Source: a virus. Taken from it: a stretch of 31,897 nt of DNA. The notes under the pieces are model-generated. The model worked only from the letters and a program-made list of their open reading frames with translations. It did not search any database and was not told the origin of the DNA. The position numbers were made by a program, and so were the translations under genes. This document shows positions 16,650-30,315 of this stretch, in pieces. Position 1 is the stretch's first letter, and each line of letters begins with the position of its first letter. The stretch spans positions 1 to 31,897 of the IMG/VR virus record IMGVR_UViG_3300045119_000199. One strand, written 5' to 3'.

Positions 16650-17975
16650 TCACTGTTCGGCTTCGCCGGCGAGCCGGTAGACTTCCGAGCACGCGCAATT
16701 GGGGTGTGCTGGCGGTTCGAAGTCGCCGGAATCGTGCGGCGCGTCGGCCGGGATAAATCCCTCGGCCTCGTTTGCGATGCACGTCTCGCAAGGATTGGTT
16801 TCCGTCTGCCAGGCTTTTTCCACGTCGGCGCCGGTGTCGGCGGCCTGAGTCGCGGCGTCGGCGCCCCCATCGTGGTAGGCGGTCGACACGACGTTAAGCG
16901 CGACAGTATCGGCGCGGCTCATCTTGTCGCCGCCTGGATCGCCGAAGCCGGCGAAGAGCGCGCCAAGAGCCGTCGACGCCGCGGCGAGTGTGAACGGCTC
17001 GAGCGCCTTTAGCGTGTTGTGCGCGCGATCGACGGTTGTACTGTCGAGATCGTCCTCGAGATCGGTACTCGTTTGGTTGCCGTACGGCGTTTGCCGGTCA
17101 AACCGCGCCTCCTCCACCTTCACGCCCAGTTGCGCCGAAGCGTGATCGATTCCAGCGTAGTAAGCTGCAACCTTCACTTTCGCATGTGCTGTGGCGAAGC
17201 TCGAGTCGTGCAACGGTAGCGCCGTGGCGACAACCGCGGCCGCGGTAACGTAATCCGTGGCCGTGTGAGTCTTCAGAGCTCGGCGCACGTTGCGCAATTG
17301 TTTGCGCCATCGCTTCTCGAGCGCGGCGCGCATCTGATCGCGAAGCGGCGCGATCGTCGAGCGGCGCGCGTCGGCCATCAGGTTTTCAACTAAGCGCTTA
17401 TTATCGCGCTCGAAGTCCTTTAGGCCGTATTGACTCCAGTCCATCGGGTCGGCTTCGCCAACTGGGTTTTCAACGTCCTTTGGATCTTCGCCGACGATAT
17501 GCGCGGCGAGCTTCGGGTTGACGTACCAGCGAAAGCGGCTTTCATCGGTGTTGATGTAAGCGACGGCGCCGTGATGGAACTCCCAGAGCTCATCTACAAA
17601 ACAGAATGCGACGGAAGCGAGCAAGCTTTGCACCAGCGGCGAATGAGTGACGACGAGCACAGACTCGGCATCCCATTCCTTCGCGTTGCTCTGGATCTCT
17701 TTCCATGCGGCCTCCGGGTTTCCGTCCGGAAGCAACGAACTTAGATGCTCGATCGGAGTATCACCGCGTACGACAGCCTCGGCGGTTTCCGCGGCGCGCT
17801 CGAAGTCGCTGCACACGATCACGTCGGGTTTCACGTTGGCAATCTTCAAGAACTTGCGCATGACTTTTGCCTGCTCGCGCCCAATATCGTTGAGCGGCCG
17901 CTCGGCGTCCATCTGCGGCCCGTCGTCGGTCAAGCAATGCCGCATGAGATAAAGTTTCACTGTCGCGCCCCCCAT
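16650..17975 (-). CDS. SixA-like histidine phosphatase fused to Mu gpF-type minor head protein
   Basis: The product has 441 residues and two domains. Residues 6-155 match the histidine phosphatase superfamily: LYLMRHCLTDD (R12, H13), RPLNDIGREQA, VIVCSDFERAAETAEAV (R60) and VLVVTHSPLV (H111). The spacing H13-R60-H111 is close to that of SixA, which removes phosphate from protein histidine. The usual RHG reads RHC here. Residues about 185-441 are a head morphogenesis protein with the hallmark KAWQTETNPCETCIANEAEGFI and PPAHPNCACSEVY (C396, C399, H424, C427, C429). This domain sits with the portal inside the procapsid. The ATG at 17975 lies inside the preceding gene. A GTG at 17960, overlapping that gene's stop as GTGA and preceded by a G-run, gives the more usual MKLYLMRH beginning and may be the true start. 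The frame is continuous through both domains. Confidence 0.85.
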   Translation of the reverse strand: MGGATVKLYLMRHCLTDDGPQMDAERPLNDIGREQAKVMRKFLKIANVKPDVIVCSDFERAAETAEAVVRGDTPIEHLSSLLPDGNPEAAWKEIQSNAKEWDAESVLVVTHSPLVQSLLASVAFCFVDELWEFHHGAVAYINTDESRFRWYVNPKLAAHIVGEDPKDVENPVGEADPMDWSQYGLKDFERDNKRLVENLMADARRSTIAPLRDQMRAALEKRWRKQLRNVRRALKTHTATDYVTAAAVVATALPLHDSSFATAHAKVKVAAYYAGIDHASAQLGVKVEEARFDRQTPYGNQTSTDLEDDLDSTTVDRAHNTLKALEPFTLAAASTALGALFAGFGDPGGDKMSRADTVALNVVSTAYHDGGADAATQAADTGADVEKAWQTETNPCETCIANEAEGFIPADAPHDSGDFEPPAHPNCACSEVYRLAGEAEQ

Positions 17976-18194: not shown

Positions 18195-18432
18195 CAAACG
18201 CTTGGTACGGGTGTGGCTGCCAGTGCCGGATGGTAACCGGGTACTCGAGGTTTACAAACAGGCTGCCGGCAACCGGCGTCTGCGTCGGCTTGTCTGAACG
18301 CGTCTCGATCGGCCGCCACTCCATACCACACTTGGGACACTCCCACCGCGTCGCTTCATCCAGCGCGCCAGAGCGCAACATGATACTGATGAGCCGGCCG
18401 CAACACGCGTCTGGCGCGTAGCTGTTAATCAC
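18178..18432 (-). CDS. Small zinc-ribbon-like protein
   Basis: The product has 84 residues. CC at positions 10-11 and WECPKCGMEWRPIE near residues 31-44 suggest a zinc ribbon, followed by a strand-rich half (SLFVNLEYPVTIRHWQPHPY). The GTG at 18432 overlaps the end of the portal gene. The stop at 18178-18180 is the TAG that begins promoter-like element B. Function unknown; the ribbon may serve protein or nucleic-acid binding. Confidence 0.6.
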   Translation of the reverse strand: MINSYAPDACCGRLISIMLRSGALDEATRWECPKCGMEWRPIETRSDKPTQTPVAGSLFVNLEYPVTIRHWQPHPYQAFVPVRG

Positions 18433-20455
18433 GGCCGACGAGCTCGAGCAACGCGTCGACCTTGCGGCGTAGCTTCACGGCTTCGCGCATGCCGTCGCCC
18501 AACGGTTGTTGATCTACTTCGCCGGGTTGGCTTGTCGGGTTTCCATCGGGCGCCTGGATCGTTCCACCTGGCGACGGTTGCGCCTTCGGAATCGGCGCCG
18601 CGATTGGTTCTTTCGTCCGGTCTGGATCGTACTCGCCCTCCGGATACATTTCCTCGATTAGCTCCTCGGCGTCTTCGTAGCCAACCTCCTGCAGCAACAT
18701 CAACACGCCGGCGCGCTCGTCGATGCCGACAATCTGGCCGCCTTTGTTGTCGAGCGTCATAGCCTCGGCGATCGCCTTCACGCGTAGCGACATATCCCCT
18801 TCGCGGATTGCCGGGAACGTTACAGTCACTTCAATGTCGGTCGTTGCCGTCTTGCCCTTCGCCGCGTTGGCTGCCTCAGTAACCGCGGCCGACGTGTCGG
18901 CCTTCGACCATACATACTGCATGCGCCCGTCTGGCCCCAACGCGCGCGCCCGTTCCATAATCACCACGTCTTTAACGTTCACCTTGCGCCGGTCCAACGC
19001 CTCTTTGAACTTGCTCCCTGGCGCCGCGGCGCTCACGCCGAGAACGTATTTCGCGATCACGACCAAATCCTCGCGCCAGGCTTCTTGCCGCTCGAGGAAA
19101 ACAAGCTCGGTCGGCCGGTCAAGCGTCGTCGCCGTCGCCAGGTTGCCGGTTGATACGTCTGAAAGAAACGTTTCAGGAACGCCGACAACCATAGTCGCCA
19201 TAAGCTTGAACTGGCGTACTTCCTCTGGATCGCCGCCTTTGCCGGATGCGTTCATGAAACTTAACTCCGTGCCGGGCCCGCTCACGAACGTTGACGCGTT
19301 GACGGGCGCCGGGTTGGTGTCCCACAGCGCGGCCGATGGCCCAACCGTCGTTGCAAGTTGTTGCTTCAATCCTTCGATGGCTTGCTGGCCGCCCTTCGTT
19401 GTGATCGTCATAGCGAATGTCGCCAGCGCTTGCTTGACAGTTGCGCAAGCCTCGAGGAAGCGGCGCGACGCCTTCGCCCAATCGATCGCCGGGTAAATCT
19501 TCGGGCAACCGAAATTCCACTTGGCTACGGCGCCGTCTTTGCGATGGTATACCGGAACGTCCCACTTTACAGGCTGATTGTTGATCTGTGCCGGTTGCTC
19601 TTTCGGAAGGAAGTTAAGCGCCGGGTGATAGCATTCCTGGTGCTCGGTCGCAATCTGGCCGGTGTTAACGTCGAACTTGCGAGCAACCCAAACGCGCCGG
19701 TAATACCACGGCTGATCGGTGTCGTCTGGATCGGTAATAATATCCATGATCTCGGTCGCATCGATCGAGCGAACCGTCGTTTTTCCGCTGGCCGTCTTGT
19801 CACTGAAGAGCGCCCAGAATAGATTCCCGTCGTAATACTTGCGCTTTTCCGCGTCGACTAATCCCACCTGGCCGAAAACCTTCTGATTGCGATCGAAAAA
19901 GTCTTTCAGTTCGGCGTCGGCGTCTGGGTCCGAGCTCGAGATTTCAACGCCGCGGCCGAAAACATAGATACTGCAAACGTCGATCAGTCGCCGTACGATC
20001 GGGTTTTTGATGTAGTATAGGCGCGAAATCAGGATGATTTGCTGGATTCCCCAACGCGAGAACTCGAGCCAGCTAAGGTTGATCTCTCGGCGCCATTCGA
20101 CGTTCTGCAAGGCGAGCTCTATGTCGCCGAAGGCGCCTTGCTGCAGCGTCGGGTTAGTCTCGCGAATGCGCAAGTCTTCGGCCGTGGCCTCGCGAAGCTT
20201 CTTAGCGCTTTCGTTGGTAGCCAGCGCGGCGCGTGTGCCGGCCGTGAGCCATGGCCCGGCGCCGGCGAATTGTTGCGCCTCCATGCGCTCGGCCGCGTCC
20301 TCTTGCTGCCAGCGCTTGCGCAACGAGTCTTCGTCAAACTTCAGGTTGCGGAGTACTTCAGTAAGAGCGCGAAGGGTGCCGGTGTGATCCGGTGGAGGTT
20401 GCAGCGCTTGGAAGATGCGCGCCAGAATGCGTTGAACTCGCCGCCTGATGTTCAT
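18425..20455 (-). CDS. Portal protein
   Basis: From the ATG at 20455 the protein has 676 residues. After a helical N-terminus, REINLSWLEFSRWGIQQIILISRLYYIKNPIVRRLIDVCSIYVFGRGVEI is the typical portal entry segment. It is followed by FRSIDATEI-like strands (SIDATEIMDIITDPDD), the clip/stem region and PEEVRQFKLMATMVVGVPETFLSDVSTGNLATATTLDRPTELVF, a strong portal signature. The C-terminal crown is acidic and Pro-rich. Twelve copies form the ring through which DNA enters and leaves. The frame stays open up to 20602, but that extension is an Arg/Thr-rich sequence antisense-like to nothing useful and overlaps the well-supported gene at 20358-20675. An ATG at 20476 is another candidate. Confidence 0.9.
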   Translation of the reverse strand: MNIRRRVQRILARIFQALQPPPDHTGTLRALTEVLRNLKFDEDSLRKRWQQEDAAERMEAQQFAGAGPWLTAGTRAALATNESAKKLREATAEDLRIRETNPTLQQGAFGDIELALQNVEWRREINLSWLEFSRWGIQQIILISRLYYIKNPIVRRLIDVCSIYVFGRGVEISSSDPDADAELKDFFDRNQKVFGQVGLVDAEKRKYYDGNLFWALFSDKTASGKTTVRSIDATEIMDIITDPDDTDQPWYYRRVWVARKFDVNTGQIATEHQECYHPALNFLPKEQPAQINNQPVKWDVPVYHRKDGAVAKWNFGCPKIYPAIDWAKASRRFLEACATVKQALATFAMTITTKGGQQAIEGLKQQLATTVGPSAALWDTNPAPVNASTFVSGPGTELSFMNASGKGGDPEEVRQFKLMATMVVGVPETFLSDVSTGNLATATTLDRPTELVFLERQEAWREDLVVIAKYVLGVSAAAPGSKFKEALDRRKVNVKDVVIMERARALGPDGRMQYVWSKADTSAAVTEAANAAKGKTATTDIEVTVTFPAIREGDMSLRVKAIAEAMTLDNKGGQIVGIDERAGVLMLLQEVGYEDAEELIEEMYPEGEYDPDRTKEPIAAPIPKAQPSPGGTIQAPDGNPTSQPGEVDQQPLGDGMREAVKLRRKVDALLELVGRD

Positions 20456-20675
20456 TGCGGTCAAGTTTACCACCATACTTAGCCAGGATCTCGGCCGTAA
20501 GCGCCTGGTTGTTTTCCAGACGGCGCCGACATTCTGAGTGTGTGCAGTGTTGAATGTGCGCGACGTATTCGCGGTACGGCTTGCCGGCCGCCTGGAAGCC
20601 ACAGCGAAACGGCCGCTCTGTACGTTGCCCGTCCATCATTCGCGGCTCATAGCCGCTGAGTCTTGCGCCTACCAT
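20358..20675 (-). CDS. Small zinc-binding protein
   Basis: The product has 105 residues. RPFRCGFQAAGKPYREYVAHIQHCTHSECRRRLENNQ (residues about 21-57) has C25, H40, H43 or C44 and C49 in positions that suggest a zinc finger, followed by a helix TAEILAKYGG. GGAGGA seven bases before the ATG at 20675 makes this the best ribosome-binding site in the block. The last 32 residues, Ser/His-rich, overlap the portal start by about 98 bases. Function unknown; it may regulate or may have a structural role with the portal. Confidence 0.65.
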   Translation of the reverse strand: MVGARLSGYEPRMMDGQRTERPFRCGFQAAGKPYREYVAHIQHCTHSECRRRLENNQALTAEILAKYGGKLDRNEHQAASSTHSGAHLPSAATSTGSHRHPSRSY

Positions 20676-20676
20676 G

Positions 20677-20931
20677 TTAGTTTCCTCCTGGAAGCTCGCC
20701 GAACTGGCGCGCCGGCGTCGTTGCCATCCACTTCGCGAGCGCCTTCACGGCGCACGCCTCAGAACAAATATGCTCGTAAAACGGCTTGCCGTCTGACTCG
20801 GCGTCGGGTTGCCCGTGATCCCAAGCGAGTAGAGCAAAGATCCGTAACGTTAAGTCGCGCAACCACCAGTGATTCGTTTCGCCTTTGATGTTCGAACAGT
20901 AATCGCACTTGTACGGCGCGCTCAGTTTCAT
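20677..20931 (-). CDS. Small zinc-binding protein
   Basis: The product has 84 residues from the ATG at 20931, which overlaps the preceding stop as ATGA and has GAGGG five bases upstream. YKCDYCSNIKGETNHWW (C8, C11) and FYEHICSEACAVKALAKWM (H, C, C near residues 53-60) form a likely four-ligand zinc site of CxxC...HxCxxxC type. The longer frame to 20994 is not supported. It stops two bases before the start of the next zinc protein. Function unknown. Confidence 0.65.
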   Translation of the reverse strand: MKLSAPYKCDYCSNIKGETNHWWLRDLTLRIFALLAWDHGQPDAESDGKPFYEHICSEACAVKALAKWMATTPARQFGELPGGN

Positions 20932-21413
20932 AGTCCCTCTTTCAACTTCCACATTCCGGCGCCGTTTCCGTCGCGCGTGTTCATGCGCAGCCACTTGCCA
21001 TCAGCGTCGAGCACCTTTACCAACGTGCCGTCTTTTTTCAGTTCCGAGAACCGCGGGTACATCGTCTGCGATTTGAAACCTAGCTGATCCATGATCGCGT
21101 CGGCGATCGTGCCTTCGGGCGTGTACTTGCGCATGTACTCGATAATCTTGACGTGTTGCGCGCGTTTGCGCGGCGTTACTTTACGGTTGGCCGCTTCGCT
21201 GTGCTCTTCGCCGCCGTGGTTGTTGCGGCAAATGTCGTCTAAGTCGTCGGGCCCTGGTGGAACGTAGCGCGCCGCCCGGCGCTTGCGCTTCAGCGACTCG
21301 GCTAAAAAGTTGGCGATCGCGGCAACGGGCGCCGGCGCCGGTTTGCCGTTCGCGGCCGCCTTCATGGCGCCGTCGCCGAACAGCCGGCCTTGCTGTGGGT
21401 GTGGTTTCTTCAT
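20928..21413 (-). CDS. Winged-helix DNA-binding-like protein
   Basis: The product has 161 residues. The first 80 are polar and flexible. Residues 84-158 (RAQHVKIIEYMRKYTPEGTIADAIMDQLGFKSQTMYPRFSELKKDGTLVKVLDADGKWLRMN in outline) have the helix-helix-recognition helix-wing layout of winged-helix proteins. SQTMYPRFSELKKDGTLVKV corresponds to the recognition helix and wing. It probably binds DNA and could regulate phage transcription together with the sigma-like protein two genes upstream. The ATG at 21413 overlaps the preceding stop as ATGA, which decides it over the longer frame to 21482. Confidence 0.65.
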   Translation of the reverse strand: MKKPHPQQGRLFGDGAMKAAANGKPAPAPVAAIANFLAESLKRKRRAARYVPPGPDDLDDICRNNHGGEEHSEAANRKVTPRKRAQHVKIIEYMRKYTPEGTIADAIMDQLGFKSQTMYPRFSELKKDGTLVKVLDADGKWLRMNTRDGNGAGMWKLKEGL

Positions 21414-21508
21414 CGGCGTGTGGCGCCGCGGCCGTCCATGAATCCCATGAAGTAACAGAGCAACCCGAACACAAAGGCGCATAGGATCATCTTCGTATCG
21501 GTGCTCAT
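21410..21508 (-). CDS. 32-residue single-helix membrane peptide
   Basis: MSTDTKMILCAFVFGLLCYF begins a 32-residue frame with one membrane helix (residues 7-24) and a short basic tail. The ATG at 21508 overlaps the preceding stop by one base (TGATG), and its own stop overlaps the next start as ATGA, so it fits the unbroken chain of coupled genes. GGGG lies seven bases upstream. It may be a small lysis or membrane-associated peptide; function unknown. Confidence 0.5.
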   Translation of the reverse strand: MSTDTKMILCAFVFGLLCYFMGFMDGRGATRR

Positions 21509-22413
21509 CAGTACCCCAACAAATCTAGCCCGCGGAAGTGATCGCGGCCATGAGTCTCGAGTAATAGCCGTACTTCGGCCTCTTGCCATGGCTCGGCGTC
21601 GACGTGTAGGTACTGCATCCATGCCGCGTACGGCTCGAGCCAGGTTGCCGGCAACTGGTTAAACGTCCATGGCCGGTTCATGTTCATCTGGCGCGCCAGC
21701 GTCGAGTTAGGATCGGTTGCCGGCCCGTAGGTGTGTTCGATCTCGGCCGCCGTCTTATGCGGCCAACGTAACCGCTCGGTGATCTTGTAGAGCGCGTGCT
21801 TTGCCCGTAGCCGGCGCTCGGAGGCGCCCCACAGGTGTACAACGCCGCCGTACCCCTGGCGTAACGGGCGCCAGCGGTTCCAACCGCAACCGAACGGCTC
21901 GCGATGGTGAAAGCGATCGCCGCCCGATTCCCAGTTGAGCGCCGGCCCATCTTTGAACGCGGTACTAAACCAGCGGTTTCCCCAAATGCCGTTGGTGTGG
22001 TACCGCCAATGGTTCGGCTCGTCGCAACACTGGCGAATGTTGTAGCCTGGCAGTTCCAACATCATGCCGGGCGCCAGGCTGAAGACGTGGCCGCGAATGT
22101 CGGACAGAATGTTAGGCGTTAGAAACTCGTCGGCGTCGACGATCGCGATATGTGTGGCGCCCACTTCGAACGATCGCGCGAGCTCGAGCAACGCTTGACG
22201 ATGCCTCATTTCGTCCCATAGCGGCTTCTCGTCGCCCACCACGATAACGCGGTCCCGATAATCCGCGGCCGCGGTTAGTGCGATCGCGGCGCTATCGTCA
22301 TTGCACGCGTGAAGTAAGACAACAACTTGATCGCACCACTGCAATGCAACGCGTAACGTCAAGCCGAGACACCACGCCTCGTTGCGGACGGGCATCAGGC
22401 CAACGAGTTTCAC
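21508..22413 (-). CDS. Glycosyltransferase, GT-A fold (GT2-like)
   Basis: The product has 301 residues. The start MKLVGLMPVRNEAWCLGLTL is the nucleotide-sugar binding strand and loop of family 2-like glycosyltransferases. HIAIVDADEFLTP (residues 88-100) supplies the DxD-type metal-binding motif. LLHACNDDSAAI and the later WRYHTNGIWGN and VVHLWGASERRLRAKHALYKITERLR segments fit enzymes that resemble SPBc2-type and eukaryote-like GT2 variants. It would transfer a sugar to an unknown acceptor. It is coupled by ATGA to the sigma-like gene upstream. Acceptor candidates are a virion protein, phage DNA or host surface glycan. Confidence 0.8.
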   Translation of the reverse strand: MKLVGLMPVRNEAWCLGLTLRVALQWCDQVVVLLHACNDDSAAIALTAAADYRDRVIVVGDEKPLWDEMRHRQALLELARSFEVGATHIAIVDADEFLTPNILSDIRGHVFSLAPGMMLELPGYNIRQCCDEPNHWRYHTNGIWGNRWFSTAFKDGPALNWESGGDRFHHREPFGCGWNRWRPLRQGYGGVVHLWGASERRLRAKHALYKITERLRWPHKTAAEIEHTYGPATDPNSTLARQMNMNRPWTFNQLPATWLEPYAAWMQYLHVDAEPWQEAEVRLLLETHGRDHFRGLDLLGY

Positions 22414-22946
22414 GCGCCGAGCTCCTGGCGCATGCGTAGCATTGCGTACGTTTTCGCGGCGCCCATCCGGTTATGAGAAATTTGCATTTCGGTGCGAATG
22501 TCGCCCGTCGACCATCCGGCCGCCAAGAGACAAGCGACGGCGTAGCCGCGGCCGCTCATGCCAGCATGCGCCTGGCGCGGCTTTAAGCCGGCCACGGCGC
22601 GGCGCACGCAAACGCGCGCTATGATTCGATCTTCGATGTTACAGCCGTCCGGAATCGCAACCGGCCGCTCTTCGTCGTCGAGCGTCACTACCTCAACCGC
22701 GGCCAGATTGTTCCGCGTGCCGCTAACGGCGTACTTGCGCATTTGATCCTTTAGCGCGCCCACAACGCGAAGTCGTGCGAACTGCCAGAATGTCGAGCCG
22801 CGGGTTGGGTCGAACCGCGGAGCTACTTCGGCGAGCGTCAAGTAAGCAATTCCTATCGCGTCGTCTGGCTCGAGCGGCCCGCGGTTGCGAAGCGCCTGCA
22901 ACCGGGCGTTAGGCATTGCGTCCAGTATCATCCGTTCCATATCCAT
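22410..22946 (-). CDS. RNA polymerase sigma-factor-like protein
   Basis: The product has 178 residues. Residues 28-72 (DDAIGIAYLTLAEVAPRFDPTRG, then STFWQFARLRVVGALKDQMRKY) match sigma-70 family region 2, with the FDPTRG-x-x-F-x-x-(Y/F)A-x-x-R-(I/V)-x-GA pattern that is most like FliA-type factors. Residues about 117-172 (AVAGLKPRQ, CLLAAGWSTGDIRTEMQISHNRMGAAKTYAMLRMR) form a helix-turn-helix in the place of region 4. It would direct host RNA polymerase to phage promoters; the TAGTTGCGCAA elements in this window are natural candidates. GAGG lies two bases before the ATG at 22946 and eight bases before an in-frame ATG at 22940, so 22940 may be the real start. Confidence 0.7.
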   Translation of the reverse strand: MDMERMILDAMPNARLQALRNRGPLEPDDAIGIAYLTLAEVAPRFDPTRGSTFWQFARLRVVGALKDQMRKYAVSGTRNNLAAVEVVTLDDEERPVAIPDGCNIEDRIIARVCVRRAVAGLKPRQAHAGMSGRGYAVACLLAAGWSTGDIRTEMQISHNRMGAAKTYAMLRMRQELGA

Positions 22947-22956
22947 CGCCTCGATT

Positions 22957-23574
22957 TTACTTCGGTAGAACGAAGAGCGAATCCCAATGCCCTACGCCGG
23001 TTCCCTGTTTGGAAAGCTCATGCTGGATACAGTGATAGCCGAGCGTGTGCAGCCGGGCGCAAGCGCGCTCGCAACCGCGTTGCTTTCCTGGCCCCGTCCA
23101 ATCGTGAAACTCGACGCTGATCTGTGTCGCGATCGCCGCGGGTAGGTTCTCGAGGATGCCGAACTCTGAGCCTTCGCAATCCAGCTTGATCGCGTCGAAC
23201 GTCTCGCGCTGGTTGGAATATAAGAGTTTGGCAATGTTGATCGCGAGCACGCGCCGTATCTTGTAATCGCCGTGGCTTTCCGCCTCGAGCGCGAAGTTGC
23301 CGCCGCCGTCGCCGGCGATTCCCTCGGCGAAGTTGGTAGAAAATTGGTCGCCGCCGATCAGAGCCAGGCGGAAGAAGTGAACTTGTGCGGCCGGTAGATC
23401 CATGGCCCATTCAACATCGCTCGACGGGTCAAGCGCGATGATCTGAGCCTTTGGGCGCCAAGCGAGAACGCCGCGGGTAAAGTCGAACCAGCGGCAACCA
23501 ACGTCTAACACGAACGGCTCATCTGGTAACAGGTCAACATCGATGGTGTGCGAAGCAAGCGTTTGCAGATTCAT
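22957..23574 (-). CDS. FkbM-like methyltransferase
   Basis: The product has 205 residues from the ATG at 23574, which overlaps the preceding stop as ATGA; the long upstream extension is an unrelated Arg-rich frame. FVLDVGCRWF (residues 21-30) is the SAM-binding motif I and IIALDPS (45-51) the acidic strand. FDAIKLDCEGSEFGILENL (126-144) is the hallmark of the FkbM family, whose members O-methylate sugars and polyketides. The end VGHWDSLFVLPK closes the Rossmann-like sheet. Within this cassette a methylated sugar is a likely product. Confidence 0.8.
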   Translation of the reverse strand: MNLQTLASHTIDVDLLPDEPFVLDVGCRWFDFTRGVLAWRPKAQIIALDPSSDVEWAMDLPAAQVHFFRLALIGGDQFSTNFAEGIAGDGGGNFALEAESHGDYKIRRVLAINIAKLLYSNQRETFDAIKLDCEGSEFGILENLPAAIATQISVEFHDWTGPGKQRGCERACARLHTLGYHCIQHELSKQGTGVGHWDSLFVLPK

Positions 23575-23816
23575 TGCGGCTTTCCCTTTGTCCAGTCGAA
23601 CGGTTTGAAGCTGAAGCCTTCCGGTGTGATGATTGAGACGGCCGCGATCGCCCGCGGCGGCCCGTTCGGCTGTCGGACGCACAGGAATAGATTGCCGTCC
23701 TGTAACACTAGCGCCGTGCCGTGTTTCTTCATGACCGCTTGCACGTCGTTGAGCACGTCTTCGCCGCGGTCTGGATCGCCCGGCCGCGGCTCGGTGATAA
23801 CCCGCGGCCCGCTCAT
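23571..23816 (-). CDS. Small unknown protein
   Basis: The product has 81 residues. The pattern VLNDVQAVMKKHGTALVLQDGNLFLCVRQPNGPPRAIAAVSIITPEGFSF, in outline, is a helix followed by three strands. Similar small proteins occur in other phages, but I cannot name a family. GAGGA lies five bases before the ATG at 23816, which also overlaps the preceding stop as ATGA. Its stop overlaps the FkbM start as ATGA. Confidence 0.6.
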   Translation of the reverse strand: MSGPRVITEPRPGDPDRGEDVLNDVQAVMKKHGTALVLQDGNLFLCVRQPNGPPRAIAAVSIITPEGFSFKPFDWTKGKPQ

Positions 23817-23944
23817 CGTTTCCTCTTGAGCCAGGCGCGCAATCTGGTGCCGGCGCGTGTTCCAATGTCGCCGGCGATCGCCTCGAGCACGGCATAAGTG
23901 GCGACGGCGGCCGCAACGCCTAACAGAACGTCCCGCGTGCTCAT
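23813..23944 (-). CDS. 43-residue small membrane protein
   Basis: The frame MSTRDVLLGVAAAVATYAVL continues through EAIAGDIGTR and ends with the basic LRAWLKRKR. One membrane helix (residues 5-24) and a strongly positive C-terminus are visible. The ATG at 23944 overlaps the TylF-like stop as ATGA and its own stop overlaps the next ATG in the same way, so it occupies the gap exactly and very likely is translated. Function unknown. Confidence 0.65.
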   Translation of the reverse strand: MSTRDVLLGVAAAVATYAVLEAIAGDIGTRAGTRLRAWLKRKR

Positions 23945-24555
23945 GTCCACTTTCGCCACGCGATCGGCGCCGGCATCACGGTTTGATGCAAAGCATACCT
24001 GCAGCCGGCCAGGTCGTAATCATCGCAAATGATGTAACCGCCTTTGGCAACCAACGGGTACAGGTGCTCCATGCAAACTTTCGTCGACTCGTACAAGTCG
24101 CCGTCGAGCCGAAGCAAGGCGATCGCCTTCACTTCATACGACTCCGCGGTGTAACGCACGGTATCGCGGAAGTCGCCGACGTGGTACACCAGAAGCTCAT
24201 CCGGAATGCCCCACTTGCGCATATTGTTTTTGACATTCGGCAACGAACAGCGCGCCTCGCCCTGGCGCACTTGCGCCGGGTCGTCATGCGGGCCCGGCGC
24301 CGGGATTCCATCGAAGCTATCGAACAGGTGAACGCGCCGCGATCCATCGAACGGCATCACACTAGGGCTGTTGTGGTGATCTAAGATCGCGCGCGCCATA
24401 ATCGCGCAACTGGCGCCGGCGAACACGCCACACTCGACGAAATCGCCGGGAATGCCGCGGGCAAGCACGTTGCGCGCCAGGTCGTACGTCTGCTCTTGGC
24501 TCGTACGATGGCCGAGCGCCGATTGACAGACTTGTTCAAACCACTCTTGATTCAT
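23941..24555 (-). CDS. TylF/MycF-like O-methyltransferase
   Basis: The product has 204 residues from the ATG at 24555. GDFVECGVFAGASCAIMA (residues 37-54) is the family's SAM-binding start. RVHLFDSFDGIPAPG (74-88), KAIALLRLDGDLYESTKVCMEHLYPLV (143-169) and KGGYIICDDYDLAGCRYAL (171-189) are the TylF/macrocin O-methyltransferase signatures, including the Asp residues that bind metal. Family members methylate hydroxyls of sugars. The real start is fixed by the ATGA overlap with the preceding small gene; the upstream extension of the frame is not protein-like. Confidence 0.85.
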   Translation of the reverse strand: MNQEWFEQVCQSALGHRTSQEQTYDLARNVLARGIPGDFVECGVFAGASCAIMARAILDHHNSPSVMPFDGSRRVHLFDSFDGIPAPGPHDDPAQVRQGEARCSLPNVKNNMRKWGIPDELLVYHVGDFRDTVRYTAESYEVKAIALLRLDGDLYESTKVCMEHLYPLVAKGGYIICDDYDLAGCRYALHQTVMPAPIAWRKWT

Positions 24556-24710
24556 ACTCCAACCCCCATATCGCCCTCGAGTCGCTTCACCGCGGCCGGC
24601 GCCGGCGCTTGGGCGAGCGGCCCTTCGCATTCCGTGTAAGTCAACACTTCCACGTCGCCTAGTTTTTTGTGCAGCGCTTCTAACCGTTCGATGTATTCGC
24701 TGATCTTCAT
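24552..24710 (-). CDS. Small conserved-type phage protein
   Basis: The product has 52 residues, MKISEYIERLEALHKKLGDV followed by EVLTYTECEGPL. A helix followed by a DVEVLTY strand is a common small-phage-protein pattern, one of the MTISELI..L..GD..V type. ATGA overlaps at both ends tie it to its neighbours. Function unknown. Confidence 0.6.
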   Translation of the reverse strand: MKISEYIERLEALHKKLGDVEVLTYTECEGPLAQAPAPAAVKRLEGDMGVGV

Positions 24711-25492
24711 ACGTTGCAGTACTTGCTCCCTGTGCGATCGAGGATGTTTCCAGAGCGCCATTGCTGGCAGAACAGTTGAGGGTAGGCGTCCTCTGGCTTA
24801 TAGGTGCCGTTGTTGTGAACGGGCCATCCGTTTTGATCGGGCGTTCGATGCGTCGGAATCCCGTACTTGACGGCCAGGTTTCCCAACACAGATTGCTCGC
24901 AACTGTTCTTAAACAGCGTCGGGTCGTCGAGCACGCCGAGCACGGATGATTTCTCATGGAACGTGCAAGACGGATTGAGCGAGTAGGTTTGCCACTCGGC
25001 TAGGAACTGTTCAACGCGGTAGTTGCCGGCGCGATAGAGCGAGAACCGGCCGCAAGCTTGCGGCGCGTCGTAGTAGTGCGGTTGGTTCAAACAGCCCATG
25101 GCGTGAAAGCAATCCGCTTTCGTCCACTGCCGGTTGATGCAACCTTGCTCTTCAAACAACATGATTCCTTCGCGCTCGGTGTATTCGAAGAGACACGAAA
25201 CGTCGGACACTGGAAAGCTATCACCGTCCAGATAGAGCACCACGTCGCCGGGTTGGCAGTAGTGCGCGAGCGCGTGTTTGATGATGTACGGTTTCCATGA
25301 ACAGAAGCCGAAGCCGTGTTGTGGCTCGCGCTCGAAGATCCAACGATTGAGGGTGTAGAACGGCGTCGTCATGAGCCAGGCATCGTCATAGACGCGGTGG
25401 TGTAGCATGTTGCCCTGGCAGTATTGCACCTGGCGCGCGACTTGCTCATCGTAGGCTACGCCGCCGAAGGTAATCAGAATACGCTTGCTCAT
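24707..25492 (-). CDS. Glycosyltransferase-like protein
   Basis: The product has 261 residues from the ATG at 25492 (ATGA overlap). KRILITFGGVAYDEQVARQV begins a Rossmann-like domain and GFCSWKPYIIKHAL with GDVVLYLDGDSFPV (residues 82-95) supplies a DxD-type motif. This resembles glycosyltransferases of the mannosyltransferase or capsular type (WKP-x-x-I followed by YLDGD). The C-terminal half has several Cys and the segment ILDRTGSKYCNV. The donor and acceptor are unknown. It lies between two methyltransferase-like genes, which supports a joint pathway. Confidence 0.7.
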   Translation of the reverse strand: MSKRILITFGGVAYDEQVARQVQYCQGNMLHHRVYDDAWLMTTPFYTLNRWIFEREPQHGFGFCSWKPYIIKHALAHYCQPGDVVLYLDGDSFPVSDVSCLFEYTEREGIMLFEEQGCINRQWTKADCFHAMGCLNQPHYYDAPQACGRFSLYRAGNYRVEQFLAEWQTYSLNPSCTFHEKSSVLGVLDDPTLFKNSCEQSVLGNLAVKYGIPTHRTPDQNGWPVHNNGTYKPEDAYPQLFCQQWRSGNILDRTGSKYCNV

Positions 25493-25959
25493 TGCCAGAG
25501 CCTCGAGGCGAGCTCGTTGGATTGCGTCAAGACTAGCGTCCACGGCCGGGCGCGTTTGTCGACAATGTGATATTTCCAGCGGTCGAGCTCGAGCGAGTCG
25601 AAGATTTCCGGCGCCGGGTAATCGTGAATTACGATGTACTCGGCCGAGTCGACGAACAGCAAGGCGTCGGCCGCGCGCCGGTGTCCATTATGATCGAGGA
25701 AGACGATGGACCATTTCTCACTTGCGCAATTCCTCAGCGTCGTTGTCATTTGCGAAAGCGGGCAATAGGCACTAACCGTCTTCATGGCCCACGCTGGATC
25801 TTCCTCGAAGGACTGGAAGAAGCGCCCGGCGACTTCGCAGTATTTGCGCAACAACGGCGTCGACCATTCGCCAGAGCCAACCTCGAGCACGGGCCCGCTC
25901 GTTGCTAACAGGCAACTGAACAGCGCCGGCAGATGAGACGCCCACATTTGCTCGCTCAT
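25489..25959 (-). CDS. Class I SAM methyltransferase-like protein
   Basis: The product has 156 residues from the ATG at 25959 (ATGA overlap). GPVLEVGSGEWSTPLLRKYCEVAGRFFQSFEED (residues 22-54) has motif I and an acidic second strand, as in class I SAM-binding folds. WSIVFLDHNGHRRAADALLFVDSAEYIVIHDYPAPE matches motifs of small methyltransferases that carry a DH or HD pair for metal binding. It is shorter than most members. Substrate unknown; a sugar or glycan is suggested by its neighbours. Confidence 0.65.
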   Translation of the reverse strand: MSEQMWASHLPALFSCLLATSGPVLEVGSGEWSTPLLRKYCEVAGRFFQSFEEDPAWAMKTVSAYCPLSQMTTTLRNCASEKWSIVFLDHNGHRRAADALLFVDSAEYIVIHDYPAPEIFDSLELDRWKYHIVDKRARPWTLVLTQSNELASRLWQ

Positions 25960-26180
25960 CGGTTTACTGGTTTCCCTTCGATAGTCACCAGCGTAAGATG
26001 TAAAATCCTCGAATTTGGTAGCGCTTCGTCGAAGCGGGCCTCGTAAGCGACTCCCTCGCACTTAGCCTTATAGAGCGGCCGCTCGCCGCGCTTCAGTGCC
26101 GCGGATACCTGCTTGTAGACAGCCTCCGAAAACGATAATGTGAGTCCTTCTGTCAGGTCCTTCTCTGTCGGGAACATCAT
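25956..26180 (-). CDS. Small unknown protein
   Basis: The product has 74 residues, with a charged N-terminal helix (FPTEKDLTEGLTLSFSEAVYKQVSAALKRGERP) and a strand-rich second half (YKAKCEGVAYEARFDE, ILHLTLVTIEGKPV). The ATG at 26180 overlaps the preceding stop. A second ATG directly after it (26177) is four bases from GGAGG and may be used instead. Its stop overlaps the next start as ATGA. Function unknown. Confidence 0.55.
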   Translation of the reverse strand: MMFPTEKDLTEGLTLSFSEAVYKQVSAALKRGERPLYKAKCEGVAYEARFDEALPNSRILHLTLVTIEGKPVNR

Positions 26181-26974
26181 GCCTCCAATGGTTCGTGGCC
26201 GGGAAAGCCGCCTGCTTTGCGCGCCGCGAATAGCGCTTTACTTCGGTCCCAATCGCTTAACCGCGGGTCGTTGATCTTCTTCGCCCACTCGGGCGCGTCG
26301 CGCCAGTCGCCGCGCGGCCGGGCCCAGTGCCGATGCTCCTGCAGTAAGTCGCGCCGCTGCCAGAACACGCCGAGCTTTTGCGCGACGTTCTGTAACTCTT
26401 CGTCGGCGAAGTTGTGATAGTAGCCGTTGTACATCGGCCCTGAGCCGTGATACATGCGCCGGCAGAACTCGCGCCCCATCCAGGGCGAGCCGGCGATACG
26501 GTCGATTGTGGCTTGTCGGCCCGTGCCGCCGCACGCGTCGCACAGTATCGACATACTGCTAACGCCCATGCACTTTAGACAGCGAGCCTCGCCCCATCGG
26601 TCGCCGGTCGGTTGCATGACTCCGAAAGTCGGAGTCGAACGGCGCCCTTTCAGAGTCTCGAGGGTGTGAAAGTATTCGCCACACTCGGCCGCGATCTCGG
26701 CGGCCGTCTTCGTTGGGTCCGGATAGTAATCATCGCCGCCCGTGACAAACCACTCGGCGTCGGAATGAGCGGCCATGCACGCGTTTACTAACAGGTTTAC
26801 CGATCGCGCCCAACCGATATATTGCTCGACGACGCCTTGAAAGTCTGCGCACGTTCGGCCGTCTGCGTCTTCGCGCAACACGGCGACTTCGTAGCCCTGG
26901 CCGAGCCAAGCATCAATACAAGCGTTCGCCTCGGCCAGCGGCCGCTTGGATGGAATCACAAACCAGACGCTCAT
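26177..26974 (-). CDS. Glycosyltransferase-like protein with zinc-finger insertion
   Basis: The product has 265 residues. VWFVIPSKRPLAEANACIDAW begins a GT-A-like domain, and EWFVTGGDDYYPDP (residues 74-87) carries the acidic metal-binding motif. Between residues 132 and 152, CLKC and CDACGGTG form two CxxC pairs. The second is a DnaJ-type CxxCxGxG, an unusual insertion in a glycosyltransferase. The C-terminus has many Trp and basic residues (HWARPRGDWRDAPEW). The start overlaps the preceding stop as ATGA. Whether it is catalytic is uncertain. Confidence 0.65.
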   Translation of the reverse strand: MSVWFVIPSKRPLAEANACIDAWLGQGYEVAVLREDADGRTCADFQGVVEQYIGWARSVNLLVNACMAAHSDAEWFVTGGDDYYPDPTKTAAEIAAECGEYFHTLETLKGRRSTPTFGVMQPTGDRWGEARCLKCMGVSSMSILCDACGGTGRQATIDRIAGSPWMGREFCRRMYHGSGPMYNGYYHNFADEELQNVAQKLGVFWQRRDLLQEHRHWARPRGDWRDAPEWAKKINDPRLSDWDRSKALFAARKAGGFPGHEPLEA

Positions 26975-27747
26975 GGATACAACCTATCCCGCGCGTACGC
27001 GTCCCACTCTGGCGCCCGGCGCCACTCTGGGTTGATATGTGGTTTGTGCCGGTCGAACAAGTGGCCGGCCTCGCTCGACGACCAAAACGAGCCGCTGATA
27101 TTGGCGCCGTGAGTCTCGGCAATCAACATCGGGCCCGGTAGAACGCTTGGCAAGCCAACACCGTTGACGGCGTTAACCCTGACACGCTTGCAGAAGTCTG
27201 GATCTTCGTAAGTGAGCTTTTCGGAAAAAGCCGCGTTGCGCCACGTCTCGCGCCAGTAGGCGAGCGACGTTCCTACCACCATCGGCCGGATGGAATTGTA
27301 GCCGCCGAAGCGCCGGTAATCGTACTCCCACGCGTGGAAGATTGGCGCCGGCACATGCACGGCGCGCGTGTCGAGAAAGAGCAGGTTATGAAAGCCGGTC
27401 GCCGGTTGATCGCGAAGGCTTGCGACTTGGCATACCACACGCTCGGGCCCGCTCCAGTCGTCGGAGTCAAACGTTACGATCACGTCGGCGCCGGTGAGCT
27501 CGAGCGCCGCATTGCGCAACGCCCCAACCTTGCGCGCCTCTTCCGGTTGACGATCGCGAACGATAGCAATGAGTGAATGCGCCGCTCTGTCAGTGAGCTT
27601 GTACGGTACCTTGCCGGTGTCGTATATGAGCATGTGGGCGTTGCCGGCGTAGGTCTGCGATACAAAGCACGCAACGGCGCGATCGGTGAACGCCTGGCGA
27701 TCGGCAGTGAGACAGAGACAACACACCGAAGGCGCCGCGTTAGCCAT
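26971..27747 (-). CDS. Glycosyltransferase family 2-like protein
   Basis: The product has 258 residues. SVCCLCLTADRQAFTDRAVACFVSQTY (residues 7-33) is the start of a GT2 domain, GALRNAALELTGADVIVTFDSDDWSGPERV (75-104) supplies the donor-binding DxD motif as DSDD. The later YEDPDFCKRV (near 187) is like the acceptor ED motif. It would transfer a sugar from a nucleotide donor. The ATG at 27747 overlaps the preceding gene by eight bases (AATGGCTAA). Confidence 0.85.
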   Translation of the reverse strand: MANAAPSVCCLCLTADRQAFTDRAVACFVSQTYAGNAHMLIYDTGKVPYKLTDRAAHSLIAIVRDRQPEEARKVGALRNAALELTGADVIVTFDSDDWSGPERVVCQVASLRDQPATGFHNLLFLDTRAVHVPAPIFHAWEYDYRRFGGYNSIRPMVVGTSLAYWRETWRNAAFSEKLTYEDPDFCKRVRVNAVNGVGLPSVLPGPMLIAETHGANISGSFWSSSEAGHLFDRHKPHINPEWRRAPEWDAYARDRLYP

Positions 27748-28036
27748 TACCGGCCGCCTTCAGAATTGCCAAGCGCTCTTCGAGTATGCCGGCAACCAGC
27801 GCGTCCAGACTTTCGACGATCGCGAGCGCCGTAGCCGGCCGCATTCTTCCGGCCATGTGAGCTTCGGCGGCCGTCGCGACAAACTCGCTCACAATGTCAA
27901 CCTCTGCGGAGTAAATCGACGGCGTTCTATCGGCGCGGTCTAGTTCCCTTAGTTGCGCCAGGCGCGCATGAACGCGTTGCAGCATCACGCGCGCGCGTTC
28001 TTTCTCCGCGGCGTTGAACGGTATAGGCGCCCTCAT
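27740..28036 (-). CDS. Small helical unknown protein
   Basis: The product has 98 residues, almost entirely helical and rich in Ala, Arg, Glu and Leu (EKERARVMLQRVHARLAQLREL; ALAIVESLDALVAGILEERLAILKA). It may form a coiled coil or bundle. The ATG at 28036 overlaps the previous stop as ATGA. Function unknown. Confidence 0.6.
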   Translation of the reverse strand: MRAPIPFNAAEKERARVMLQRVHARLAQLRELDRADRTPSIYSAEVDIVSEFVATAAEAHMAGRMRPATALAIVESLDALVAGILEERLAILKAAGNG

Positions 28037-28284
28037 TGCGGCGAGCTTCCCCCGTCGTTGATCGGGCGCCCCATTTCGCGCAAGTCGAGCGTCTGCTCGG
28101 CGGCCGCGGCCGCCCGCTTCGTGCCGGCGTCACTTCGCCGGCGCCGCTTGGGCGCCTCGGCTTGCCGGCCTTCGACAATGCCTTCGCACACGCGCAAAGT
28201 GTCGGCGGCGTCTTCGATTCCCTGGATTGAGAACCAGCGCCGTATATCGAACTCGTCGACTTGCCGTAACTCTTCGTCTGTCAT
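28033..28284 (-). CDS. Small charged unknown protein
   Basis: The product has 83 residues from the ATG at 28284, chosen because it overlaps the MazG-like stop as ATGA; the frame has another ATG nine bases earlier. DEELRQVDEFDIRRWFSIQGIEDAADTL is acidic and helical, the middle APKRRRRSDAGTKRAAAAAEQ is basic and probably flexible. Function unknown. Confidence 0.55.
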   Translation of the reverse strand: MTDEELRQVDEFDIRRWFSIQGIEDAADTLRVCEGIVEGRQAEAPKRRRRSDAGTKRAAAAAEQTLDLREMGRPINDGGSSPQ

Positions 28285-28523
28285 TTCTCGCACGCCTCCA
28301 TAGCGAACCGAAGCGCCATTGCGGCCAGTTGGATCGCCTCATGCCGCATCTTTTTTGGCTGCCGTTTCTTCGGCCGCTTCCACACTTCGGCTTTCAACTC
28401 GTCGAACTCTTCGTGGATCACGGCGAAGCCTTCATGCGCGGTGTTGAACTTCGCGTACTTTCGTAACGCTCGATCGAGCTCGTCTTGCACGTCGCGCAAT
28501 TCTCGGCTATAGAGTTTAGCCAT
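28281..28523 (-). CDS. MazG-like small protein
   Basis: The product has 80 residues. AHEGFAVIHEEFDELKAEVW (residues 29-48) with E38, E39 and E42 resembles the metal-binding EExxE motif of MazG-type nucleotide pyrophosphohydrolases. A second helix, HEAIQLAAMALRFAMEAC (61-78), holds another acidic residue, E62. It is short for a full MazG enzyme but like small phage relatives. It could remove abnormal or signalling nucleotides such as ppGpp, but no substrate can be read from sequence. The ATG at 28523 overlaps the preceding gene by eight bases. Confidence 0.55.
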   Translation of the reverse strand: MAKLYSRELRDVQDELDRALRKYAKFNTAHEGFAVIHEEFDELKAEVWKRPKKRQPKKMRHEAIQLAAMALRFAMEACEK

Positions 28524-28785
28524 TCAGTTTTTGTGCCACCAGTTCTAGCCAAATGTTTACCGCGTCGTCGTCTGCACAGTCGACGCCATGGCCGCGGCGT
28601 ACACCCTTGATGCATAGGCGCCGAAACTCGGCGACGCCGGCCGGCGATCCAACAACACCCCATCGGCCGTTCTCGTCTCGTACGCCGCGGACCTTGCCGA
28701 ACCGTTCGGCGCATGCCGCGAACTCGAAACCGAGCGTACGCCAGAACGCCGTTTTCGACAGTGAGGAAGGACAGCGACGCCGCAT
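28516..28785 (-). CDS. Small unknown protein, first gene of the accessory cassette
   Basis: The product has 89 residues from the ATG at 28785 (MRRRCPSSLSKTAFWRTLGFEF). It is basic, with Cys at 5, 25, 58 and 70 and segments AERFGKVRGVRDENGRWGVVG. The frame is open to 28890, but the promoter-like element C lies inside that extension, so I prefer 28785. The -10-like GATAGC ends ten bases before this ATG and no ribosome-binding site is seen. Function unknown. Confidence 0.6.
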   Translation of the reverse strand: MRRRCPSSLSKTAFWRTLGFEFAACAERFGKVRGVRDENGRWGVVGSPAGVAEFRRLCIKGVRRGHGVDCADDDAVNIWLELVAQKLNG

Positions 28786-28944: not shown

Positions 28945-30315
28945 TCAAATCGGCGAGATTTGAACGCCGCGGCCGATTTGCACAGACTGTTCCACAGGCT
29001 GAGGAAAAAGTAACTCCGTCACGGCCCACACCAGCGCATCCATCCGGTTCGGCGACGGCCCACCAGGAACGTACGTTGTCATTTCTTCCTCGAGCTCGGC
29101 GAAGACGCCGACGTGATGCACGATTCCCCGCTCGTACGCCGTCGCGATCGGCTCGGCGCGCGTCATCTTGCCGCGGCTCGCCCACACCTTTTGAAACGGC
29201 GCGTTGGGTTGCGCAACGCGTATATTCGCCTCCACCAGGTCGCCGCCGTTGTTGACTTCGCCCACGATCAAATCAACCGGGTACTGTGGGTGCCGCAAGT
29301 AATCGGTTGCTACCTTCGCCCACGCCGCTGGAAGCGCCCTTAGCGACGGGTCGGCCAGGATCAACACATGCCCCGATCGTACCTGAGCCGCAACACACAT
29401 GCCGGTTAAATCCGACGTGTCGGCCGTGCTCACGGCCGGGTCGATCGCGAGCACCACGCGTACGACCATATCCCACTGAACATCACGCAATTGGATGCGC
29501 AAATCGCCGATCAGTTTTGCCGTCCACAAGGCGCCGGGCGTGTCCTCGAGCACTTCGGCGTAAATCTCTTGCCGGCCGAGCCTGGTTCCTTCGTACGGCG
29601 CGATCACTTCGCGATAGTAGTCCTCGCTGATGTTGGCCTTGTTTTCGTAGCTCGAGCCGCGGGTAACGACAGTCCGCGGGTTGCTGATTAGTTCTTTGAG
29701 CTCTTTGGTTGGCTTCGGCGTCGTCGTGATAACGCCGCGCAACCTCGAGCTCTTCATGCGAAAGCCGAATTTGACTTGCGTCCAAGCTTCACTGAGGAAG
29801 CGCCAGGCGCAAAACTCTTCAGCCCAGAACTTTGTGAACTGCGGCCCGCGGAGGCGTTCCGGTTCGTCGGCTGATCGAAGTATGCCGATCGCGCCGCTTG
29901 GGAAAACAATGAGCCGTTTGGACGGAAAGTATTCCGGCCGGCGCGTCGCCGGATAACACTGCAGCAAGCCGGATGGCCCTTCAATCATCAGGTCGCGAAT
30001 GTCGGCCGCGGTGGGCGCGATCATGAGGATTCGCTCGTGTGGATCTTCGCCCCATATCCGGCACGTCTCGGCGCCGGTGCGAGTCTTGCCGAAGCCGCGG
30101 CCGGCGAGCACAAGCCAGAAGATCCAATCATCACGCGTGATCGCGGCGCGGTTCGTGCCGGGTATCAGTTGCTTTGGACGGCCCCACATGCCGGGCCAGT
30201 CGTGCAACATCGTGGCGCATTGCGCCTCGGTGAACTCGCTAAGAAGCTGGTTCCGTTGGTGTTCCGGTAACGATGCTAGCAATTCGGCTGTGGAGTAATT
30301 CTGATGCGCTGACAT
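28945..30315 (-). CDS. Terminase large subunit
   Basis: The product has 456 residues, the packaging ATPase and nuclease. LAGRGFGKT (residues 70-78) is Walker A, FWAEEF (163-168) Walker B with the catalytic Glu, and TTTPKPT (197-203) the coupling motif. The C-terminal nuclease has LAIDPAV (D292), IVGEVNNGGD (E353) and NRMDALVWAV (D426), the three metal ligands of the RNase H-like fold. Overall it matches the COG5323 / Terminase_6 type family, including gene transfer agent terminases. It cuts concatemers and pumps DNA through the portal. It overlaps TerS by 77 bases. Confidence 0.93.
   Translation of the reverse strand: MSAHQNYSTAELLASLPEHQRNQLLSEFTEAQCATMLHDWPGMWGRPKQLIPGTNRAAITRDDWIFWLVLAGRGFGKTRTGAETCRIWGEDPHERILMIAPTAADIRDLMIEGPSGLLQCYPATRRPEYFPSKRLIVFPSGAIGILRSADEPERLRGPQFTKFWAEEFCAWRFLSEAWTQVKFGFRMKSSRLRGVITTTPKPTKELKELISNPRTVVTRGSSYENKANISEDYYREVIAPYEGTRLGRQEIYAEVLEDTPGALWTAKLIGDLRIQLRDVQWDMVVRVVLAIDPAVSTADTSDLTGMCVAAQVRSGHVLILADPSLRALPAAWAKVATDYLRHPQYPVDLIVGEVNNGGDLVEANIRVAQPNAPFQKVWASRGKMTRAEPIATAYERGIVHHVGVFAELEEEMTTYVPGGPSPNRMDALVWAVTELLFPQPVEQSVQIGRGVQISPI

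What the first reader, a model, noticed from the sequence alone, without database searches (positions are those of the whole stretch)
20358..28785. Sugar-modifying cassette between terminase and portal
Seen: four glycosyltransferase-like genes, an FkbM-like and a TylF-like O-methyltransferase and a third methyltransferase-like gene, interleaved with small genes and mostly coupled by ATGA overlaps. Known: packaging and portal genes are normally adjacent; FkbM and TylF families methylate sugars. Inference: the phage may build an O-methylated glycan on a virion protein, on its DNA, or on the host surface to block superinfection. The position in the structural operon favours a virion or DNA target.
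Basis: partly seen in the sequence, partly recalled or inferred. Interest (0 to 1): 0.75.

Follow-up and report, generated by a model that had tools for sequence, protein, structure and literature searches.

The report
Soil-phage cassette for sugar-coating virions
An uncultivated bacterial virus carries a block of sugar-attaching and methyl-attaching enzymes between its DNA-packaging and portal genes, and related viruses carry the same block next to their shell-protein gene, so it probably decorates the virus particle with methylated sugars.

Summary
Between terL (28945-30315) and portal (18425-20602) lie four GT-A/GT2-type glycosyltransferases, a TylF-type and an FkbM-type methyltransferase and a third methyltransferase-like gene. 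Six of ten internal junctions are 4-base overlaps; acidic motifs are intact across relatives. Relatives keep the order GT g32 - GT g31 - variable methyltransferase/GT middle - GT g24 (g31 before g24 in 41 of 41 loci; a methyltransferase between them in 38 of 41). The cassette occurs in two head contexts: between terL and portal (class A, including the window), and right after an HK97-type major capsid gene (class B, including an Acidobacteriaceae KBS 96 prophage). The g24 tree forces at least three switches between contexts, so the cassette moves yet stays in head operons. Cassette-free relatives have terL and portal adjacent, so it is an insertion. No cassette protein looks membrane-bound. 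Cluster O mycobacteriophages, whose virions are reported glycosylated, have the same logic (portal - TylF O-methyltransferase - three GTs - capsid genes); only the methyltransferase is detectably homologous. Best reading: cytosolic glycosylation, with methylated sugars, of a head protein. DNA as target is weakened, not excluded; a Gtr-type host-surface route is unlikely. New variant of virion glycosylation; target and sugar are inferred.

The parts
28945..30315 (-). terminase large subunit (one border of the insertion)
   Evidence: PF03237 3.5e-21, PF17289; phrog_979
28033..28293 (-). g34, small gene, found at 48% in L006 and about 44% in L008
27740..28036 (-). g33, small gene of unknown function
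   Evidence: ORF, 4-base overlap with g34
26971..27747 (-). g32, GT2-type glycosyltransferase, conserved 5' end of the cassette
   Evidence: PF00535 6e-4; profile to heparosan synthase 2e-13 and SpsA; D94, D96, D97 invariant in 29 sequences
26177..26974 (-). g31, GT-A fold glycosyltransferase, core gene; a Cys-rich insert near residues 134-150
   Evidence: model pLDDT 92.5; WrtF Z 15.3, rmsd 2.8, 185 aligned; G80, D81, D82 invariant in 47 sequences
25956..26180 (-). g30, 74-aa gene of unknown function
   Evidence: ATGA overlaps on both sides
25489..25959 (-). g29, methyltransferase-like
   Evidence: no Pfam; relatives L101, L114, L124, L131-L133, L137; conserved residues
24707..25492 (-). g28, GT-A fold glycosyltransferase (fold closest to blood-group GTA/GTB)
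   Evidence: model pLDDT 91; GTA/GTB and PBCV-1 capsid GT, Z 13.8 and 13.7; D88, D90 invariant in 21 sequences
23941..24555 (-). g27, TylF-family O-methyltransferase
   Evidence: PF05711 8.8e-37; 28% to cluster O mycobacteriophage O-methyltransferases
22957..23574 (-). g26, FkbM-family methyltransferase
   Evidence: PF05050 8.2e-6; conserved in L156, L018, L117, L008
22410..22946 (-). g25, sigma-70 region 2-like protein; role unknown
   Evidence: PF04542 2.5e-5; relative in L156, 39%
21508..22413 (-). g24, GT2_4 glycosyltransferase, conserved 3' end of the cassette
   Evidence: PF13704 1.9e-6; GmaR 1.9e-4; D93, D95, E96 invariant in 27 sequences
20928..21482 (-). g23, small gene after the cassette, winged-helix-like by eye (not tested)
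   Evidence: phrog_1123 0.0045
18425..20602 (-). portal protein (other border of the insertion)
   Evidence: phrog_10963 3.4e-62

Best explanation
A virion-glycosylation cassette. During late infection the phage makes soluble cytosolic glycosyltransferases and methyltransferases together with its head proteins. The first enzyme puts a sugar from the host's nucleotide-sugar pool onto Ser/Thr of an abundant virion protein (major capsid protein most likely). The other GTs extend it, and the TylF and FkbM enzymes O-methylate sugar hydroxyls. Conserved outer genes (g32, g31, g24) would build a common core; the variable middle would vary the decoration. Shown: gene content, GT-A folds (two models), conserved motifs, head-operon position in two head lineages, transfer between them, insertion between terL and portal, no membrane-protein candidates. 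Inferred: the virion target, O-linkage, which GT acts first, the sugars, and the benefit (for example shielding in soil or from host surface defences).
For: Conserved order in relatives: 41 of 41 loci with both genes have g31 before g24; 38 of 41 have a methyltransferase between them. Of 78 g31 loci, 52 have cassette mates: 15 with class A head genes, 23 with an HK97-type MCP upstream, 14 with no head gene recognised; 25 have g31 alone and 1 gave no hit. KBS 96 prophage: terL-portal-protease-MCP-g32-g31-FkbM-type MT-g24-adaptor. g24 tree: three class switches forced by starred branches. No cassette protein from g23 to g32 exceeds 1.6 in Kyte-Doolittle windows. Cluster O mycobacteriophage Schuy: portal - O-MT - three GTs - protease - MCP; O-MTs of this kind are the only cultured-phage relatives of g27 (33 of 33 matching records are Mycobacterium phages; 29% identity). 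Papers state that these enzymes modify capsid and tail tube proteins (PMC11600133 passage) and that Corndog gp38 is essential for capsid glycosylation (PMC12363180 passage), both citing Freeman 2023, which I could not open. g28's fold is close to the PBCV-1 capsid GT; g24's profile best matches the flagellin GT GmaR (GmaR's role recalled).
Against: No glycan has been measured. The GT families show no homology to the three Schuy (cluster O) GTs. The MCP-tail correlation is confounded by descent and has nine exceptions in 87; class A MCP tails do not differ in the cassette-free relative. The L100 genome has a C-5 cytosine methylase next to terL, which could feed a DNA-modification route. In L101, L114, L137 and L007 the cassette genes lie with tail-type genes rather than recognised head genes.
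Confidence: 0.68

Rival explanations
1. DNA hypermodification: the GTs glycosylate modified bases (5hmC or 5hmU) of the phage genome and the methyltransferases cap the sugars, protecting DNA from restriction.
For: Virus GTs can hypermodify DNA with diverse glycans (Pyle 2024, seen only as a reference in PMC12619734). The L100 genome encodes a C-5 cytosine methylase beside terL and an N6/N4 methylase.
Against: No thymidylate-synthase-family (hydroxymethylase) gene in 18 of 19 records, the exception being the 83-kb L114 record. Tet_JBP 0 of 19, but the control did not ring, so that is inconclusive. No Tet or thymidylate synthase among 20 scanned ORFs of the L100 genome. The cassette keeps to structural operons in two different head modules.
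Confidence: 0.14
2. Host-surface modification: the cassette alters host surface glycans to exclude superinfecting phages or change serotype.
For: Several carriers have integrases (6 of 19 virus records), and prophage GTs often modify surface glycans (recalled).
Against: No hydrophobic segment above 1.6 in cassette proteins g23-g32, whereas Gtr systems use a flippase and membrane GTs (recalled). Position in the head operon implies late, not lysogenic, expression (inference).
Confidence: 0.1
3. Virion glycosylation, but of a tail or other structural protein rather than the capsid (a sub-case of the best explanation, scored within it).
For: Reported mycobacteriophage glycans sit on capsid and tail tube (PMC12619734 and PMC11600133 passages). 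L101-type relatives carry the cassette near tail-type genes.
Against: In class B the cassette follows the MCP gene, 23 of 78 loci.
Confidence: 0.3

Closest known systems
Cluster O mycobacteriophages (Corndog, Schuy) virion-glycosylation genes
   Same: A TylF-type O-methyltransferase plus three GTs inside the head operon next to portal and capsid genes; the O-methyltransferase is homologous (29%).
   Different: The Schuy GTs are not detectably homologous to the four window GT families; they lie between portal and protease, not terL and portal; one methyltransferase instead of three; different host phylum.
Che8-type (cluster F) mycobacteriophage GTs
   Same: Phage-encoded GTs reported to glycosylate the capsid (PMC12363180 passage).
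   Different: In cluster F phage Maravista they are reported near the 3' end of the genome (PMC11256854 passage), not in the head operon; not compared here by sequence.
PBCV-1 chlorovirus capsid GT (2p6w/2p72)
   Same: GT-A fold similar to g28 (Z 13.7) and a capsid target.
   Different: About 10% identity; virus of a eukaryote; fold similarity only.
Gtr serotype-conversion cassettes of temperate phages
   Same: Phage-encoded GTs (recalled).
   Different: Membrane flippase and membrane GTs are absent here; location differs.
T-even and Tet-type phage DNA glycosylation
   Same: Phage GTs, possible methylase partner in one relative.
   Different: No hydroxymethylation gene found in most relatives.

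Membership tests
GT-A / GT2-type glycosyltransferases (g24, g28, g31, g32) | GT-A fold | tested here: met
   g31 Z 15.3 and g28 Z 13.8 against solved GT-A enzymes; g32 and g24 by profile only
GT-A / GT2-type glycosyltransferases (g24, g28, g31, g32) | acidic DxD-type motif | tested here: met
   invariant in all four alignments
GT-A / GT2-type glycosyltransferases (g24, g28, g31, g32) | glycosyl transfer activity | not testable with these tools
   needs enzymology
TylF O-methyltransferase family | PF05711 above curated cut-off | tested here: met
   127.2 bits against cut-off 23
FkbM methyltransferase family | PF05050 above curated cut-off | tested here: met
   26.5 bits against 22.7
Class I SAM methyltransferase (g29) | match to a curated methyltransferase model | tested here: inconclusive
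   no Pfam match at E 0.1; motif-like residues conserved in five rows
Mycobacteriophage virion-glycosylation system | GT and O-MT genes inside the virion operon | tested here: met
Mycobacteriophage virion-glycosylation system | GT sequences homologous to cluster O GTs | tested here: not met
   profile comparisons with the three Schuy GTs gave no match
Mycobacteriophage virion-glycosylation system | glycan on capsid or tail tube | not testable with these tools
   needs mass spectrometry
Gtr serotype-conversion cassette | multi-pass membrane flippase and membrane GTs | tested here: not met
   no hydrophobic window above 1.6 in g23-g32; g33 reaches 1.64 once
Phage DNA glycosylation | hydroxymethylpyrimidine synthesis or Tet oxygenase | tested here: inconclusive
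   PF00303 absent in 18 of 19 records; PF12851 0 of 19 with a silent control; the window record is a fragment

The most novel reading that the evidence does not exclude
A mobile, exchangeable 'coat glycan' module of phages that infect soil Acidobacteriota: conserved outer GTs build a core on the Ser/Thr-Pro C-terminal tail of the major capsid protein (class B) or on another head protein (class A), and a variable methyltransferase/GT middle diversifies it, so different head lineages swap particle surface chemistry much as bacteria swap O-antigens.
Probability: 0.3. Interest if true: 0.75.

Novelty: new variant of a known kind. Interest (0 to 1): 0.58.

Why it matters
Phage virion glycosylation was reported in mycobacteriophages and described there as having little evidence in the broader phage population (Freeman 2023 abstract, recalled). 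A conserved GT/methyltransferase cassette in head operons of at least two phage head lineages, with Acidobacteriota hosts suggested, would make it a wider strategy outside animals, with a prophage in a sequenced isolate (KBS 96) on which to test it. It also offers a natural experiment on which residues carry the glycan.

Tried and rejected
Near-identity DNA search of phages: no match. tblastn of g31, g32 and FkbM g26 in 50,697 phage records: no match; g24 and g28 gave only weak matches in cyanophages, marine viruses and an uncultured phage. The first TerL scan found only 37-38% relatives.

MCP-tail hypothesis. HK97-type MCPs often end in ...G[TS]F[TN]TSP where g32 lies downstream. Three counts were made (tail and g32 / tail only / g32 only / neither): 74 rows 62/5/3/4, p 0.003; 77 deduplicated rows 53/11/7/6, p 0.03, in which rows such as L110, L113, L115, L116 and L119 were miscounted because the g32 open frame began upstream of the MCP stop; and 87 rows 67/5/4/11, p 1.7e-7, with a corrected distance rule, a looser tail rule, six cultured phages admitted by a lower length limit, and one row (L260) set by hand as tail-positive because the motif precedes a read-through extension (seen for the same contig, L187). 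Without the cultured six p is 0.001. Before counting, 157 MCP loci were reduced to 98 (identical cores merged, incomplete or short MCPs dropped), then to 87 by at least 1400 bases downstream. The tail changes only twice on the tree and the five tail-positive rows without g32 are scattered, so the independent-pair test has no power. I keep it as a lead, not as evidence. Class A MCP and major-tail C-termini show no such contrast, with only one cassette-free row to compare.

The Tet_JBP search had a silent control. Paper searches listed no title or abstract describing this cassette; one search (glycosyltransferase, FkbM, phage, terminase, portal) listed one paper, which I did not open. g23 as winged helix and g29 as methyltransferase are by eye.
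Full report
What is there. The window is one IMG/VR virus record of 31,897 bases. Every gene considered is on the minus strand. TerL, terS and portal are confirmed by Pfam and PHROGs. Between terL and portal lie g34, g33, g32, g31, g30, g29, g28, g27, g26, g25, g24 and a few small genes. Pfam names g24 (GT2_4), g26 (FkbM), g27 (TylF) and a sigma-70-region-2-like g25, and weakly g32 (GT2). g28, g29 and g31 have no Pfam match. Starts were corrected against relatives: FkbM 22957-23574, TylF 23941-24555, g28 24707-25492, g29 25489-25959. Of ten junctions from g34 to g24, six are 4-base overlaps.

Are the unnamed genes really glycosyltransferases? AlphaFold models of g31 (47-row alignment, pLDDT 92.5) and g28 (21 rows, pLDDT 91.0) are confident. 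Foldseek's best matches are at E 3.6e-5 and 6.9e-5, and the lists are GT-A enzymes almost throughout. VIA-align gives Z 15.3 (WrtF, rmsd 2.8, 185 aligned) and Z 13.8 (blood-group GT, rmsd 3.3, 202 aligned), and for g28 the PBCV-1 capsid GT at Z 13.7. Profiles of g32 and g24 match GT2 enzymes and GmaR. Acidic motif residues are invariant in each family.

Relatives. Cultured phages hold no match for g31 or g32. IMG/VR gave 70 g31 loci and a genome collection eight. Of these 78, 52 have cassette mates. g31 precedes g24 in 41 of 41 loci with both; 38 have a methyltransferase between (the exceptions are L130, L161 and L163); g32 precedes g31 in 32 of the 33 that have it, L154 being rearranged. Some loci are near-duplicates (for example L103/L104, L108/L109, L101/L114/L137), so these are not independent counts.

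Two head contexts. Class A: TerL, cassette, portal, as in the window; seven relatives show both borders (L017, L018, L102, L105, L106; L008, whose portal lies just outside the search span; L122, whose divergent TerL was found). Class B: terS, TerL phrog_9, portal phrog_12, protease phrog_80, MCP phrog_10, then the cassette, then the adaptor; 23 loci by the rule, four of which (L016, L118, L123, L125) have about 1.4-1.5 kb between MCP and g32. The class B example in a named isolate is Acidobacteriaceae bacterium KBS 96 (L157). An IMG/VR record of 40,857 bases has an MCP 100% identical to it (L167). The closest g31 (68%), g28 (57%) and g24 (65% over 102 residues at the contig end) come from a 4.4-kb contig of a Candidatus Sulfotelmatobacter MAG (L156), also Acidobacteriota. 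Host assignment to Acidobacteriota is thus likely but rests on one isolate and one short binned contig; weaker relatives come from Planctomycetota and one archaeal MAG.

History. In a tree of 93 TerLs, the 11 rows with cassette genes downstream form one clade (SH-aLRT 100) against 62 without; 20 rows had too little sequence to score, and L102 was left out as too short. Eight of the 11 came from g31 searches or are the window, and 'without' means no match to the window's cassette proteins. In three more distant relatives with a recognisable portal, TerL and portal are adjacent (-4, 55 and 82 bases), so the cassette is an insertion. In a g24 tree of 31 rows, head class B needs three changes and starred branches force three: the cassette has moved between head lineages while remaining in head operons.

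What it probably does. No protein from g23 to g32 has a membrane-like window above 1.6, so the enzymes are probably cytosolic. They would be co-expressed with head proteins (inference). The strongest parallel was found, not assumed: the only cultured relatives of TylF g27 are in 33 Mycobacterium phage records, O-methyltransferases wherever the listing shows a name, and in Schuy that gene is followed by three GTs between portal and capsid protease. The cluster O paper reports that the four corresponding Corndog enzymes were detected in infected cells and proposes that they modify the capsid (PMC4351075 passages). A later paper states that they modify capsid and tail tube (PMC11600133 passage), and another that Corndog gp38 is essential for capsid glycosylation (PMC12363180 passage); both cite Freeman 2023, which is not held. 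The three Schuy GTs are not detectably related to the four window GT families, so this is the same logic, apparently assembled separately.

Rivals. DNA glycosylation needs a modified base; a thymidylate-synthase-type gene was found in 1 of 19 records, Tet in 0 of 19 with a silent control, and neither among 20 ORFs of one 44-kb relative, which however has a C-5 cytosine methylase next to terL. Host-surface Gtr-type modification lacks the membrane parts. Which virion protein is modified is open: class B position favours the MCP. A Ser-Pro MCP tail goes with g32 in raw counts (67/5/4/11 of 87) but the association is confounded by descent and absent in class A.

Verdict. Ordinary in mechanism type, unusual in scope: a conserved, mobile, methyltransferase-rich GT cassette of head operons, with Acidobacteriota phages as likely carriers. 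A paper on Acidobacteriota viruses mentions GTs among predicted moron and AMG genes (PMC11924767 passages), but searches listed no title or abstract that describes this cassette.

Noticed in passing
window 16650-17975: Head protein with an N-terminal histidine-phosphatase domain (PF00300 1.3e-14) and a C-terminal Mu-F-like stretch (PF04233 1.7e-4, below its cut-off) in one reading frame; relatives in L018, L060, L090, L100, L102, L105 and others.
   Followed up: partly
window 22410-22946: Sigma-70 region 2-like gene inside the cassette; a relative in the same place in L156. It might be a late regulator.
   Followed up: no
L164 11627-12979 (record of L100): Sulfotransfer_4 domain with a galactosyltransferase-like stretch in one ORF outside the cassette, hinting at sulfated glycans in a relative.
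   Followed up: no
window 26177-26974, residues 134-150 of g31: Cys-x2-Cys pairs form a small insert, also in L006 and absent from the other 12 rows; looks like a zinc knuckle inside a glycosyltransferase.
   Followed up: no
L213, L216, L220, L225, L229: Capsid relatives with the TSP tail but a prohead-protease-like gene after the MCP (by eye) and no g32 nearby; where their glycosyltransferase is, if any, is unknown.
   Followed up: partly
L159-L161, L163: Planctomycetota MAG contigs encode g31 relatives in frames of about 370 aa, in L161 and L163 followed by g24; cellular or prophage origin not resolved.
   Followed up: no
L154: Rearranged cassette: g31 to g24 then g32 lie upstream of TerL and portal.
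   Followed up: no
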